Shown here: one piece after another, positions 19,648-35,265 of the stretch
Position numbering within the stretch: the first letter of the stretch is position 1
How the letters are laid out: each line of letters begins with the position of its first letter
IMG/VR virus record: IMGVR_UViG_3300017971_000548
Span: 1 to 35,265 of that record
Strand: one strand, 5' to 3'
Origin: a virus
Length of the DNA stretch: 35,265 nucleotides
Notes under the pieces: model-generated
Database searches by the model: none
What the model saw: the letters and a program-made list of their open reading frames with translations, nothing else
What the model was told of the DNA's origin: nothing
Translations under genes and position numbers: made by a program

Positions 19648-19690
19648 AGTCGGCTCCTTAAGGCGATGGAAAAACGGTTCAGGCTACTAT

Positions 19691-20398
<708 letters not shown>

Positions 20399-30642: not shown

Positions 30643-32259
30643 CTAAAAAACGATTACCTCAACTTCTTGATTGTCCTTTTTCCATTGATACTGGTCAAGG
30701 TAATACCTGCGGATCCCGTCCAATAGTTGCGAGAATGAGTCTGCCATATCATCATGATCGGCGGGGAACTCAACGAGCTCATAGACTAGATTGCCTCTGC
30801 GCTCATCGAATTTCTCGTTATCTGCGTCCAGGTGTGCAGCAAATCTTACATGGTCGTTCTCTAAAAAGGGAGTCACTCCGTCGAGGCGCTGATATTTTGA
30901 CCCCCTGGGCGTAACCGGTTCGAGAATCCCCAGCAATTCTGGGTAATCTTCTAAGACTCTCTGATCAAGAGATTCGTTGCCGGCAATCTCCACCAAGACT
31001 CTGAACGGCTTATATCTCTGATATTCCTTGTAAATCATTAAAGCCTGCTGCGCCTTGGTAAGTTTGGCGCGCCAGGCATCGACGACCCTCACCTTTTTCG
31101 ATATTGGATTGACTGCGCCTGTGGTACTAGCAAAGAAATCGTTGGCCTCCTTGAGCCCTGTGGCCACGTCGTACGATGTGAAGAAAACCCAGCCTTCCTC
31201 CATCATGGATCGGATATCGAAAATATCGTATTTGACCCAGGCTTCCTGGATCAGCCTGTCAATATCGGCGATCGGTTCGTTTTTGTATCCACGCGCCCAG
31301 GCGCTGGGGGACATGGTCGTCCTTTTGTCCCTGAGGCTCGCCTCTGAGATTTTGTCTGGCCACATAGAGCCGAACCCGTTGCCCCCCTTTATCTGGTAGA
31401 ATAGCTTTTTGTAGGCGCCGCTTCTCATCACCTTGTGGCTGTTGTCGTCGCGATGGTAAAGCGTACAGATATAAATTATTTGAGAGTCATCATGTACAAG
31501 GTTCATCCAGTCATTTTCCCAAGAGCCGATCACTTTCTGCCGGTGCCCTGGTTTTATGATCGCATTCTGAAGGCTCACGATGTCGTCTGCCAGCAGCAGA
31601 TCGCAACGCGCGCCCGTGATAGATGAACCGATTCCTTTGCCCTCGAGGGAAGGCTCCGGATCGATGATTTCCCTTTGCACAAAAATCGAGTGCATGGCCC
31701 AGCCGGTTTTTTTGTCTGGGCGCAGGTGAGGAAATACCTCTCTGACTTTCTGGTTTTTCTCTATGGTTTTCTTGATTGTTTCCAGGCGTTTGATCGCTGT
31801 GGGGTCGTCGGCGCAGACTATCTTAACTCGAAGGTTCGGATTGCGTCCCAGGCGCCAGACTATATAAGGGAGAATGATCGACGTTTTCCCGTGGCCACGT
31901 GGCGCAATGATTATTATGCGCCGGTTTTCCTCCATGGCCTGGATCCACTCTTCATGATACCACTGAAGCTCGAATCCCTTCCCACTGACTGGGTCGACGT
32001 AGCAATACTCTAGAAAACAAGCGAAGTCATCCCTACATTGCTGCAGGTGAACCTCTTTGATCCGCAGCGCCGCCTCTTTTAAGAAAGCGATGCGTTCCCG
32101 TTCCTCTATGCTGTCGACGTCTTCGAATTCATCCACTGCAACCAGGTGGCGAACCGGTGGCTTGAATCCCTTATGCAGAGCTCCGACTTTTTTTTTGTCG
32201 TAATGCCCAGACGGATAAAGTGGAGTCGGTTCGAAGAACCTATCGACGGCCGCGCTCAT
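30643..32259 (-). CDS. terL: Terminase large subunit
   Basis: This 538-residue packaging motor has an N-terminal ATPase and a C-terminal RNase H-like nuclease, the standard phage arrangement. Walker A is APRGHGKTS (about 119-127), Walker B is LLLADD (221-226), and ICTLYHRDD (274-282) fits the coupling motif. In the nuclease domain, SYDVATG gives D364, EIAGNES lies at 414-420, and DHDDMADSF (511-519) supplies the last acidic metal ligands. It pumps DNA into the prohead through the portal, encoded next, and cuts concatemers. Length is normal for the family. Its ribosome binding site is weak, so translation may depend on coupling to the exonuclease gene 3 nt upstream. No small subunit is recognisable in the window. 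Confidence 0.95.
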   Translation of the reverse strand: MSAAVDRFFEPTPLYPSGHYDKKKVGALHKGFKPPVRHLVAVDEFEDVDSIEERERIAFLKEAALRIKEVHLQQCRDDFACFLEYCYVDPVSGKGFELQWYHEEWIQAMEENRRIIIIAPRGHGKTSIILPYIVWRLGRNPNLRVKIVCADDPTAIKRLETIKKTIEKNQKVREVFPHLRPDKKTGWAMHSIFVQREIIDPEPSLEGKGIGSSITGARCDLLLADDIVSLQNAIIKPGHRQKVIGSWENDWMNLVHDDSQIIYICTLYHRDDNSHKVMRSGAYKKLFYQIKGGNGFGSMWPDKISEASLRDKRTTMSPSAWARGYKNEPIADIDRLIQEAWVKYDIFDIRSMMEEGWVFFTSYDVATGLKEANDFFASTTGAVNPISKKVRVVDAWRAKLTKAQQALMIYKEYQRYKPFRVLVEIAGNESLDQRVLEDYPELLGILEPVTPRGSKYQRLDGVTPFLENDHVRFAAHLDADNEKFDERRGNLVYELVEFPADHDDMADSFSQLLDGIRRYYLDQYQWKKDNQEVEVIVF

Positions 32260-32262
32260 CTA

Positions 32263-33048
32263 TCAAGGGCGCCTGGGGTAATCACCACGCAGAGCTCCAA
32301 TGATCAGGTGCTCGCAGTCTGGTCCTATCACCTTGTTTTTCAGCATCCAAGACAGGTAAGAAGTGTCTAGCTGCTGCAGCGAGGTTCCTTTGTTCTTGCC
32401 AAATGTCAGGACAACCCTGTCCCCCTCCCATTTGAGCTTGCCGGCAAAGTCGACCGCGTCCGGATCTCGCACGTGCGCCCACAGCCCCTCGGGATCCTCA
32501 GGCAAGTCGTCGTATTTCCTGAACTGCCCCTCTAACACTGCCATGGTTGCTTTGACGTCGGCGAGCGCGTCGTGGTGATCCTCGAACTCCTCGCCGGTGT
32601 AATACTTCACGGCCGAGGCCAGGTCCCTGGGCTCATAGTGGAAATATATCTTCATTGCGTCGACGATCTGGAAGTCCAGGCGCATGGCATAGCCAGCCCT
32701 GTCGAATTCGTTGATCAAGAGTGGGATGTCGAACCGCGCCACATTGTAGCCTGCTAGGTCGCAGTTTTTGAAAAACGAAGCGACGTCTGCTGCTGCCTGT
32801 TTGAAGGTCGGCGCGTCCTTAACCATTGCGTCGGTGATCCCGTGAATCTCGATCACCTCCGGCGGTATCGGCCGCTCGGGATTGATCAGCAGGTTTATCT
32901 CGCTAGTGTCCCCCAGCTCAGAGTCTCTGTGTCCCTCGGGATATACCTTCACAGCAGCGATCTGAACTATGCGATCCTCGTCGACTTTGGCGCCCGTGGT
33001 TTCCAGGTCGAAAAACACAAGCGGCCGCTTCAGTTTCAGTCTTTTCAT
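32263..33048 (-). CDS. DnaQ-family 3'-5' exonuclease with ExoX-like C-terminus
   Basis: The protein (261 residues) has the DEDDh exonuclease motifs in order: FFDLETTG with D14 and E16 (Exo I), AGYNVARFDIPLL with D107 (Exo II), and HDALAD with H159 and D164 (Exo III). A C-terminal segment, FGKNKGTSLQQL then YLSWMLKNK (about 217-238), matches the small domain that follows the nuclease in ExoX-like proteins. No polymerase is nearby, so it is probably a stand-alone exonuclease used in DNA repair, recombination or end processing. The ATG has GAAAGGGGC as its ribosome binding site. It sits 12 nt after the radical SAM gene and 3 nt before the terminase gene, in one operon. Confidence 0.9.
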   Translation of the reverse strand: MKRLKLKRPLVFFDLETTGAKVDEDRIVQIAAVKVYPEGHRDSELGDTSEINLLINPERPIPPEVIEIHGITDAMVKDAPTFKQAAADVASFFKNCDLAGYNVARFDIPLLINEFDRAGYAMRLDFQIVDAMKIYFHYEPRDLASAVKYYTGEEFEDHHDALADVKATMAVLEGQFRKYDDLPEDPEGLWAHVRDPDAVDFAGKLKWEGDRVVLTFGKNKGTSLQQLDTSYLSWMLKNKVIGPDCEHLIIGALRGDYPRRP

Positions 33049-33060
33049 GCTTTGCCCCTT

Positions 33061-34305
33061 TCAGATTTTCAGGCCGACTTCGTCGGCGTACTTCAGCGCC
33101 TTTGCCCTTAGCTGGGCAGGCGTTAATAAATATTGAACCCTCCAGTTTGGATTGTCATCCTTTAACCACCCTTTCCTTAATTGTTCTGGAGTGGCGCACA
33201 TTGCTTTACAAGAGTTTTTCAGCCTGGTTTTATACATCGCCGGCGCCACGATCTGCACGTGTTTCGTGAAGCCAGGACCACCAAAGAACCAGTCCTTAAA
33301 CCTAGAGAACCGTTCCCAGTATTCGTCTTTGAGTGGCAGCACTCCGAGGGGGTGCGCAGGTCCTGGAATGAACCCGTGAAGGTTCATCATAATGACCCCC
33401 TTGTCCAGGGTGACTTTTATCATATCGATCAGCCCTTGGAATTCTGCCCAGTCGGCGTCTGTCTCGCCTGGCAATCCGACGACATAGAAAAGCCTCACTC
33501 CCACCCCTGCGTCGGCCGCTCGTTTGCAGAGCTCGACCAGCCCCTGGTTATCTACCCGCTTTCTTACCGCCCGTCTAAGGCGTTCTGAGACCCCTTCGAC
33601 ACCGACACGAATCGACTTCATTATTTTTCTATCCATGTTCATTTTTTTCAGAGCAGAATAAGAGGCTGAGACAAATTGCTGCTGTCCTGAAAATTCGAAA
33701 TTGTCTGCGGCGCCGTCGTTTGTTATCACCGCGATCCGTCGGTTTCTTTTTTCCAAGTCGAAGATCTGGCGCTGGACCCTTGCTGGGTTCGGATTCGGTA
33801 AGTATTTCTGCTGCCAGCCAGTCTGACAAAAAAGACATTTTTTCTTGCACCCCCTGGATCCCCACACCCTCACCGTTCCGTCTGGGTGATTAAGAGGAGG
33901 GCAATCCCAGGGGAACGACTGCGAAGGAATAACCAGCTTTTCTTCGCCACGTCGCCACACCTCAGGAAGAGACTCTGCAGCTTCCAGCCCCTCGGTCAGT
34001 AGGGTCCTCATAAAATTCTGCCCCTCACCGACGCAGATCAGGTCGACCACTTTCTCGAATACCGCAGGGGACCAGGCGCCACCCCCTCCCAGGATAACTC
34101 TGGATCGGCCGTTCCAGTATTTCTTAAGCTGGGTTCTAAGACCAGGCACCCCCTCAGGCGCCGACACGGTGCACAGCAGAACGTCAGCCACTTCGGGAGG
34201 GCATTCCTTCACACCAGCTCTTTCGAGCTCCCACTGCAGCCAGGTCGCAGCGAGCCCCCTGTGCTCTCTTTTGGAGTAGTTTGAATCTATTATCCCGATC
34301 CTCAT
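33061..34305 (-). CDS. Radical SAM enzyme with B12-binding-like N-terminal domain
   Basis: The protein has 414 residues. The radical SAM cluster motif is C153-x3-C157-x2-C160 (RGCKKKCLFC), and later motifs fit the partial TIM barrel, including VVGLPGET at 264-271. Upstream, VILGGGGAWSP (70-80) and VGEGQNF (92-98) match the end of the cobalamin-binding-like domain that precedes the barrel in class B enzymes, but the DxHxxG cobalamin ligand motif is not seen, so B12 binding is doubtful. C376 and C380 form a further pair that might bind metal. The start overlaps the ParB-like stop by 4 nt. The substrate is unknown. A nucleic-acid or virion-protein modification is an inference from context only. 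QueE-type queuosine synthesis looks unlikely. Confidence 0.85.
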   Translation of the reverse strand: MRIGIIDSNYSKREHRGLAATWLQWELERAGVKECPPEVADVLLCTVSAPEGVPGLRTQLKKYWNGRSRVILGGGGAWSPAVFEKVVDLICVGEGQNFMRTLLTEGLEAAESLPEVWRRGEEKLVIPSQSFPWDCPPLNHPDGTVRVWGSRGCKKKCLFCQTGWQQKYLPNPNPARVQRQIFDLEKRNRRIAVITNDGAADNFEFSGQQQFVSASYSALKKMNMDRKIMKSIRVGVEGVSERLRRAVRKRVDNQGLVELCKRAADAGVGVRLFYVVGLPGETDADWAEFQGLIDMIKVTLDKGVIMMNLHGFIPGPAHPLGVLPLKDEYWERFSRFKDWFFGGPGFTKHVQIVAPAMYKTRLKNSCKAMCATPEQLRKGWLKDDNPNWRVQYLLTPAQLRAKALKYADEVGLKI

Positions 34306-35060
34306 TCGATGCCCTTCAAAAATACCTGTTCGATGCTGTCGGCGTAATCCGTGCCGGCCTCGAATTCTTTTTGTAAATGCTCGAGCACTTTCTGCCCCGT
34401 GTCGCTGGTCACCCTTGTCTCAATGCTGCCTATTCTTATCGGCATATTGCTTGAGTTTTTGACACCTTCCCAGGTGCTGCTCACCCCCTGCCCTTTTTTC
34501 TCTGTGGACGTGTCACCAAAGGCGCCGTCTGCTGGTGGCGCCGCTGTCATTAAGTCCTCAATAGAGGGCCCGTCAAAACCGGTGAGATCCATGTCCTGCA
34601 GGACCCCAGAGTCAAGGTGTCCCAGTTCCTCTTTGACAAGGCCCCTGTCCCACTCTGAGAGTTCTGTGATCGCATTGTCTGCCAGCCTGTCGGCGCGCTC
34701 CATTTCCTCGCTCTCATAGTCTTGGAAATCGACTGGGACCTCTTTTGCTTGCATGAGCACCGCCGCTGCGTGCCGGCCGTGTCCGCGTACCACGAACCCA
34801 GACTGGTTCGAGATAGTGATCGGACCCCGCCAGCCGTGCCCGTTGATCAGCTTGGCGAGAATAAAAATTTGATTGTCTGGGTGCTTGTTTGCGTTCCTGG
34901 GGTACAGCTTCACTTTGTCGAGTGGTATGATCGCGTCGTGCGCACAATGCACTCGCACCCCGTCGGCGTATACTGGGGCCCCCGTCTGTGGTTTCTTTTT
35001 CGCTGCCGGTTTCTTTTTCGCTGCCGGCTTCTTTTTGGTTTTCTTTTTGGCTGTTGCCAT
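34302..35060 (-). CDS. ParB/sulfiredoxin-fold protein with lysine-rich N-terminal tail
   Basis: This 252-residue protein has a ParB-N-like domain at about residues 40-135. PLDKVKLYPRNANKHP (46-61) matches the usual opening and RGHGRH (92-97) matches the GHxR nucleotide-binding signature. Residues 1-24 are almost only K, A, P and T, coded by two near-identical DNA repeats, and look like a histone-H1-type DNA-binding tail. The fold is known in CTP-binding partition proteins, nucleases and phage proteins near terminase genes; which activity applies here cannot be seen. AAAGG lies 9 nt before the ATG. The stop overlaps the next start as ATGA, coupling it to the radical SAM gene. No small terminase subunit is visible, so a role in packaging initiation is possible but unproven. 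Confidence 0.8.
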   Translation of the reverse strand: MATAKKKTKKKPAAKKKPAAKKKPQTGAPVYADGVRVHCAHDAIIPLDKVKLYPRNANKHPDNQIFILAKLINGHGWRGPITISNQSGFVVRGHGRHAAAVLMQAKEVPVDFQDYESEEMERADRLADNAITELSEWDRGLVKEELGHLDSGVLQDMDLTGFDGPSIEDLMTAAPPADGAFGDTSTEKKGQGVSSTWEGVKNSSNMPIRIGSIETRVTSDTGQKVLEHLQKEFEAGTDYADSIEQVFLKGIE

Positions 35061-35064
35061 GGTG

Positions 35065-35265
35065 TCAACCTTTCAATGGTAACGCGTGCAGGGGCAAGCA
35101 GTTGTCCCTATTGCAGCTAACATGGAGCCTTTTCCCCATGCTCCCATTTTCAAAATAATAATATAGAGTTCCCTCGTTGCAAACAGGGCAGATCATGTGC
35201 CCCGTTTTCTCTGTTGTTGAGCTGCGGTTCTGGTCCACTATGCGGATCAGATACTCAGGCGATAT
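35065..35265 (-). CDS. Zinc-ribbon protein, C-terminal part (cut by right edge)
   Basis: A frame open from the right edge to a TGA at 35065-35067 encodes at least 66 residues of a protein whose start lies outside the window. It contains a CPVC pair and, about 25 residues later, a CNRDNC pair (C-x2-C then C-x4-C), a layout typical of a small structural zinc ribbon. A tyrosine run (YYY) lies between the pairs. The stop is 4 nt before the ATG of the ParB-like gene, so the two are probably co-transcribed. Function is unknown; small zinc ribbons of this kind are common in phage genomes. That it is a real gene is inferred from the open frame, the paired cysteines and the tight spacing. Confidence 0.6.
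   Translation of the reverse strand: MSPEYLIRIVDQNRSSTTEKTGHMICPVCNEGTLYYYFENGSMGKRLHVSCNRDNCLPLHALPLKG

What the first reader, a model, noticed from the sequence alone, without database searches (positions are those of the whole stretch)
32263..35060. ParB-like, radical SAM and DnaQ-like genes coupled upstream of the terminase
The ParB-like and radical SAM genes overlap by ATGA, and the exonuclease and terminase follow with gaps of 12 and 3 nt. A radical SAM enzyme with B12-binding-like N-terminal region in the packaging operon is unexpected. Radical SAM enzymes are known in phage DNA hypermodification, so the set could modify or check DNA before packaging; no substrate is visible.
Basis: partly seen in the sequence, partly recalled or inferred. 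Interest (0 to 1): 0.6.

Follow-up and report, generated by a model that had tools for sequence, protein, structure and literature searches.

The report
Radical-SAM gene in phage DNA-modification slot
Next to its DNA-packaging motor gene, an uncultured environmental phage carries a radical-chemistry enzyme in the spot where distantly related phages keep interchangeable sets of genes for chemically disguising their DNA, so it probably helps make a DNA modification that is still unidentified.

Summary
On the minus strand, ParB-like, radical SAM, DnaQ-like exonuclease and terminase (TerL) genes are packed with a 4-nt ATGA overlap and 12- and 3-nt gaps, and two other contigs show the same order. 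The exact trio is found only in this virus population. ParB plus radical SAM beside TerL does recur. Among 35 IMG/VR contigs of the broader TerL lineage (about 37-43% identical to the window's TerL), 22 hold a radical SAM gene. Fourteen of 23 distinct TerL clusters have one within 7 kb upstream of TerL; none has one just downstream. The slot carries exchangeable DNA-modification sets: FolE-QueD-QueC-QueE-DpdA; amino acid:DNA transferase plus kinase plus radical SAM; C5-methylase; TAGT glycosyltransferase. ParB is usually beside them. The window enzyme is divergent (no database relative above about 25%) but models as a B12-type radical SAM (MgmA, Z 19.2). Most likely it makes or finishes a base modification, with ParB as DNA-handling partner. 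Substrate, chemistry, cobalamin use and the role of the exonuclease are not shown. I rate it a new variant of a known kind: phage DNA-modification islands.

The parts
34302..35060 (-). ParB/sulfiredoxin-superfamily protein, 252 aa, standalone (no methylase domain), K/A-rich N-terminal tail, GHGR box at residue 93; proposed DNA-handling partner
   Evidence: PHROGs ParB families; profile match to Noc/Spo0J/ParB structures; Foldseek ParB/Noc/PadC/Srx; GHGR box
33061..34305 (-). Radical SAM enzyme, 414 aa, B12-type Rossmann-like N-terminal domain plus radical SAM barrel; CKKKCLFC at 153-160; GGGG...GEG signature at about 73-95; proposed modification enzyme
   Evidence: PF04055 4e-12; NCBIfam B12-rSAM matches below cut-off; AF2 pLDDT 66.8; MgmA 9ccb Z 19.2, rmsd 5.2, 343 residues
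32263..33048 (-). DnaQ/ExoX-like DEDDh 3'-5' exonuclease, 261 aa, catalytic residues intact
   Evidence: PF00929 1e-29, phrog_192 1e-52; motifs; PDB DnaQ matches
30643..32259 (-). Terminase large subunit (TerL), downstream neighbour that defines the slot
   Evidence: phrog_38 2e-76; about 37-43% identical to the 35-contig lineage
28685..30628 (-). Portal protein; conserved order TerL-portal with the lineage
   Evidence: PF04860 4e-11; about 30-37% identity to lineage portals
35065..35265 (-). Small Cys-rich ORF upstream of ParB (complete as L004:976-1191, 71 aa); function unknown, may belong to the operon

Best explanation
The ParB-radical SAM pair is this phage's version of a DNA-modification cassette that sits upstream of the terminase gene. 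The radical SAM enzyme, of the B12-binding type, most likely modifies a base (or a group already attached to a base) in phage DNA or in a nucleotide precursor before packaging, protecting the genome from host nucleases. The ParB-like protein most likely gives the enzyme access to DNA, as the ParB-like ATPase DpdB is reported to do for DpdA. Shown: the gene order, the radical SAM, ParB and DEDDh motifs, and the recurrence of radical SAM and known DNA-modification genes in this slot in distant relatives. Inferred: that this enzyme acts on DNA or nucleotides, the type of chemistry, cobalamin use, the ParB partnership and the protective effect. The exonuclease is probably an ordinary replication or DNA-turnover gene that landed in the operon.
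For: TerL lineage of 35 contigs: radical SAM in 22 of 35 records, within 7 kb upstream of TerL in 14 of 23 distinct TerL clusters and just downstream in none, against 2 of 46 other ParB contigs. Slot contents: L193 QueD 6e-26, FolE 3e-64, QueC 3e-49, QueE (PF04055 2e-14; NCBIfam 1e-30), DpdA-like phrog_887 2e-41, then ParB and TerL; L028 GATase, AADT 4e-23, GNAT, kinase 1e-24, radical SAM, TerL; L027 B12-like radical SAM, ParB, C5-methylase 1e-70; L008, L066, L200 TAGT. ParB contigs outside the lineage also hold TAGT (L009/L031, L033, L034) or TET/JBP genes (L014, L051) between ParB and TerL. Fold of the window enzyme: MgmA Z 19.2, AprD4 16.6, TsrM 14.6, spanning residues 1-366. Literature: DpdB, a ParB-like ATPase, is described as driving dPreQ0 insertion (PMC12839542; the same text notes it can be dispensable); FolE-QueD-QueE-QueC-DpdA put dPreQ0 into phage DNA (PMC6884629); ParB-domain genes lie beside CmoX DNA-modification genes (PMC12783734).
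Against: The window's TerL is an outlying member (about 37-43% identity; long branch), so the analogy crosses a large distance. No known DNA-modification family lies elsewhere in the 35 kb window or the extra 1 kb upstream, and the other part of the genome is not seen. The radical SAM is not orthologous to those in the relatives (no hits to the window enzyme). Several lineage members show no recognised modification gene in the slot (L207, L209, L216, L219). Radical SAM enzymes act on many substrates.
Confidence: 0.55

Rival explanations
1. Auxiliary metabolic or host-takeover gene: the radical SAM serves host metabolism or modifies tRNA, a peptide or a cofactor, and sits beside the terminase by chance insertion.
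For: B12-type and MTTase-type radical SAM enzymes act on many substrates (MgmA protein, AprD4 sugar, TsrM tryptophan, MiaB tRNA all share the fold). Nearest cellular relatives are TIGR03960-like proteins of unknown function at about 16-21% identity. The best phage relative (MaAM05, 25%) lies among metabolic genes ispG, mqnC and ispH, with no terminase annotated nearby.
Against: Strong positional bias of radical SAM genes to the slot upstream of TerL in the wider lineage, together with known DNA-modification genes; ATGA coupling to ParB, a family repeatedly found beside DNA-modification genes.
Confidence: 0.27
2. The three genes act together: the radical SAM modifies DNA or nucleotides, and the exonuclease supplies nucleotides or removes unmodified ends before packaging.
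For: 12- and 3-nt gaps place the exonuclease between radical SAM and TerL; its DEDDh residues are intact.
Against: No homologue of the exonuclease in the slot of any relative outside this population; its two IMG/VR relatives have no ParB, TerL or modification neighbours of these kinds.
Confidence: 0.08
3. The operon is not about modification: the ParB-like protein is a partition or regulatory factor and the radical SAM is decayed or neutral cargo.
For: ParB-like proteins can be CTP-dependent DNA clamps (general knowledge); no DNA substrate is visible.
Against: All three catalytic or binding signatures are intact; the order is kept in three contigs with only a few substitutions. Nearly identical populations are too few to measure selection.
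Confidence: 0.1

Closest known systems
Phage thymidine hypermodification clusters (5hmdU kinase, amino acid:DNA transferase AADT, radical SAM isomerase, as in Pseudomonas phage M6; from general knowledge, core papers not held)
   Same: Phage-encoded radical SAM enzyme acting on a DNA base; a full AADT-kinase-radical SAM set occupies the same slot in lineage member L028
   Different: The window shows no AADT, kinase or PLP gene; its radical SAM is B12-type, not the type in L028 (PA0069/Rv2578c-like)
7-deazaguanine DNA modification (FolE-QueD-QueE-QueC-DpdA), PMC6884629
   Same: Uses a radical SAM enzyme (QueE); the whole set sits directly before ParB-TerL in L193; the cellular Dpd system has a ParB-like partner, DpdB (PMC12839542)
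   Different: The window's enzyme is not QueE (414 aa with an N-terminal Rossmann-like domain; its NCBIfam hits are B12-rSAM and MiaB/RimO types); no QueC/QueD/FolE/DpdA seen
TET/JBP-TAGT phage base hypermodification clusters
   Same: ParB-TET-TAGT or ParB-TAGT-TerL order in relatives (L014, L008, L066)
   Different: No TET or TAGT gene in the window
CmoX/CmoY carboxymethylcytosine pathway (PMC12783734)
   Same: ParB-domain gene beside phage DNA-modification genes, ParB role unknown
   Different: Carboxy-SAM methyltransferase chemistry, not radical SAM
B12-binding radical SAM enzymes (MgmA, TsrM, AprD4, OxsB, CysS) and TIGR03960/TIGR04013 families
   Same: Domain order and fold, GG...GEG signature, CxxxCxxC
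   Different: About 16-21% identity to cellular homologues; known members act on proteins, sugars or small molecules, none on DNA to my knowledge

Membership tests
Radical SAM superfamily | CxxxCxxC [4Fe-4S] motif in a partial TIM barrel | tested here: met
   CKKKCLFC 153-160; PF04055 4e-12 (47 bits, cut-off 29.5); fold matches
B12-binding-type radical SAM (fold class) | N-terminal Rossmann-like B12-binding-type domain fused to the radical SAM core | tested here: met
   MgmA 9ccb Z 19.2 over 343 residues, model residues 2-366. Caveats: AF2 model mean pLDDT 66.8, and its alignment was itself made of B12-type homologues; the related MiaB/RimO fold scores Z about 15; PF02310 not matched
B12-binding-type radical SAM (cobalamin-dependent enzyme) | Binds and uses cobalamin | not testable with these tools
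   Needs spectroscopy or structure; the shared fold with MiaB/RimO and AprD4 shows that fold alone does not fix cofactor or chemistry
Known NCBIfam B12-rSAM models (TIGR04013, TIGR03960, MgmA TIGR04014) | Score above curated cut-off | tested here: not met
   37.1, 34.8 and 34.8 bits against cut-offs of 251, 462.3 and 360
Phage DNA-modification islands | Presence of at least one enzyme with established action on DNA bases in the same cluster | tested here: inconclusive
   Not found in the window or 1 kb upstream, but the contig ends there; present in the equivalent slot of distant relatives
ParB/Srx superfamily | ParB N-terminal fold with GxxR-type box | tested here: met
   GHGR residue 93; profile match to Noc/Spo0J; Foldseek ParB, PadC, Srx
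ParB/Srx superfamily | NTP (CTP/ATP) binding and hydrolysis | not testable with these tools
   Needs a biochemical assay
DnaQ/ExoX DEDDh exonucleases | ExoI/II/III motifs with DEDD and His | tested here: met
   D14, E16, D107, H159, D163; PF00929 1e-29
QueE | Match to a QueE family model | tested here: not met
   No QueE model among the window protein's NCBIfam matches up to E 1; the same library finds QueE in L193 at 1e-30

The most novel reading that the evidence does not exclude
A cobalamin-dependent (B12-type) radical SAM enzyme that, with a ParB-like partner, modifies bases of phage DNA before packaging: a DNA-modification chemistry not known so far.
Probability: 0.2. Interest if true: 0.8.

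Novelty: new variant of a known kind. Interest (0 to 1): 0.55.

Why it matters
If right, this phage adds an unexplored radical chemistry to the known ways phages disguise DNA. The wider lineage shows that the place beside the packaging genes is an exchange slot: unrelated modification pathways (7-deazaguanine, AADT-type thymidine hypermodification, C5-methylation, TAGT glycosylation) alternate there while ParB is usually kept. That makes 'which chemistry?' and 'what does the phage ParB do?' directly testable, and gives a way to find new DNA-modification enzymes by reading what lies beside ParB and TerL. The radical SAM genes in the slot (QueE, PA0069-like, SPASM-like and several B12-like types) are candidates for unknown base chemistries.

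Tried and rejected
Close relatives of the radical SAM: none in IMG/VR besides the two twin contigs, none in plasmids, one weak phage hit, MaAM05 25%, none by single-sequence scan of genomes; distant ones only through an alignment. Known DNA-modification families elsewhere in the window: none. Contigs extending upstream of L004: none. Orthology with the B12-like radical SAM of L008/L027: not supported. Linkage of the exonuclease to ParB/TerL in relatives: not found. Selection on the trio from the twin contigs: too few differences. Core papers on thymidine hypermodification, the TET/JBP-TAGT systems and phage TET are not in the library, so what I say of them is from general knowledge. QueE and TET/TAGT identities for the window gene were considered and dropped. 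Failed calls from input limits: 26, 43-46, 56, 112.

Full report
What is there. The window is a 35,265-bp IMG/VR fragment that holds virion genes of a myovirus-like phage (portal, Mu F-like head protein, XkdF-like protease, capsid, tape measure, Baseplate_J). At its right end, on the minus strand, lie ParB-like (34302-35060), radical SAM (33061-34305), DnaQ-like exonuclease (32263-33048) and TerL (30643-32259), with an ATGA overlap and gaps of 12 and 3 nt. Two contigs from two samples show the same order at 99.7-99.9% identity, so the arrangement is real.

The proteins. The ParB-like protein matches PHROGs ParB families, its family profile matches Noc/Spo0J/ParB sequences, and its AF2 model matches ParB, Noc, PadC and sulfiredoxin. 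The exonuclease has all DEDDh residues. The radical SAM has CKKKCLFC at 153-160 and PF04055 at 4e-12. It matches NCBIfam B12-binding radical SAM models well below their cut-offs, and cellular homologues found through an alignment are about 16-21% identical. An AF2 model from that alignment (mean pLDDT 66.8) fits MgmA, a B12-type radical SAM methylase, at Z 19.2 (rmsd 5.2, 343 residues), then AprD4 (16.6), RimO/MiaB (about 15), TsrM (14.6) and OxsB (14.1).

Neighbourhood in relatives. ParB relatives in IMG/VR often lie beside DNA-modification genes between ParB and TerL: TAGT (PF20691) in L008, L009/L031, L033, L034, L066; TET/JBP plus TAGT in L014; TET/JBP in L051. Contigs of the TerL lineage were then collected with L028's TerL: 35 contigs, 23 clusters at 85% TerL identity, about 37-43% identical to the window's TerL with matching portals. 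PF04055 is found in 22 of these 35 records, against 2 of 46 ParB contigs outside the lineage (Fisher p = 7e-9 by record, 5e-7 by cluster against those contigs; neither corrected for phylogeny or contig length). By cluster, 14 of 23 have a radical SAM gene in the stretch upstream of TerL, two of them only as fragments (L189, L208), and none in the stretch just downstream. A few records carry a further radical SAM gene tens of kilobases away.

What else the slot carries. L193, L196 and L192: QueD, FolE, QueC, QueE and a DpdA-like TGT, then ParB, then TerL. L198 and L204: QueD, QueE, FolE, DpdA-like, ParB, TerL. L028/L187: ParB, GATase, AADT, an unknown, GNAT, P-loop nucleotide kinase, radical SAM, TerL. 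L027/L188: B12-like radical SAM, ParB, C5-methylase, TerL. L008/L194: B12-like radical SAM, SPASM radical SAM, FkbM methylase, ParB, TAGT, TerL. L200: B12-like radical SAM, ParB, SPASM-like radical SAM, TAGT. L206: PA0069-like and B12-type radical SAM, a TAGT-like enzyme, two ParBs. L066/L211: ParB, TAGT. L215: a C5-methylase-like gene and ParB. Some members (L207, L209, L216, L219) show nothing recognised. The slot is thus an exchange site for DNA-modification pathways, with radical SAM enzymes of several unrelated types.

Interpretation. By position and coupling to ParB, the window's radical SAM is most likely this phage's modification enzyme. A ParB-like partner has precedent: DpdB, described as a ParB-like ATPase that drives insertion of dPreQ0 by DpdA, though dispensable in some clusters (PMC12839542), and ParB-domain genes beside CmoX, role unknown (PMC12783734). 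The phage set FolE-QueD-QueE-QueC-DpdA is known to put 7-deazaguanines into phage DNA and protect it (PMC6884629). The B12-type fold would fit C-methylation or another radical step on a base or on its side chain, but nothing here fixes the substrate. The exonuclease has no counterpart in the relatives and its two viral relatives lie elsewhere; I treat it as a passenger or an ordinary replication gene.

Limits. The window phage is an outlier of the lineage, so the argument is by analogy across about 40% TerL identity. No established modification gene is seen in the window, and the contig ends 205 bp past ParB; its twin adds about 990 bp with none. Lineage contigs are metagenomic fragments and partly non-independent. 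The AF2 alignment consisted of B12-type homologues, which biases the fold call.

Verdict. Observation confirmed; interpretation partly supported. New variant of a known kind (phage DNA-modification island), with an unproven but testable chance of a new B12-type radical chemistry on DNA.

Noticed in passing
L193:4135-7987 (also L192, L196; IMGVR_UViG_3300018080_000595): Complete 7-deazaguanine DNA-modification set (QueD, FolE, QueC, QueE, DpdA-like) directly followed by ParB and TerL, in a contig whose sample number (3300018080) matches one of the window's twin contigs.
   Followed up: yes
L028:6618-11399: GATase, AADT, an unknown 306-aa protein, GNAT, P-loop kinase and radical SAM between ParB and TerL: a probable thymidine hypermodification cluster with an unplaced enzyme.
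   Followed up: partly
L206:6135-7909: A second ParB and an ATPase-GNAT-like fusion protein (phrog_11143, unknown function) next to TerL; could be another DNA-modifying activity.
   Followed up: partly
L187, L189, L190, L191, L202, L206: A PA0069/Rv2578c-like radical SAM (phrog_13321 in L028/L187) recurs upstream of TerL in several clusters, immediately upstream in some; function unknown.
   Followed up: partly
window 34986-35060: The ParB-like protein starts with a lysine/alanine repeat tail (AKKKTKKKPAAKKKPAAKKK), possibly a DNA-binding extension.
   Followed up: no
window 19666-20142 (+): A 158-aa ORF on the plus strand among genes that otherwise run on the minus strand; nothing assignable in the Pfam tally.
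   Followed up: no
L017:1984-2838: A PAPS-reductase-like gene directly after ParB, another possible DNA-modification pairing.
   Followed up: no
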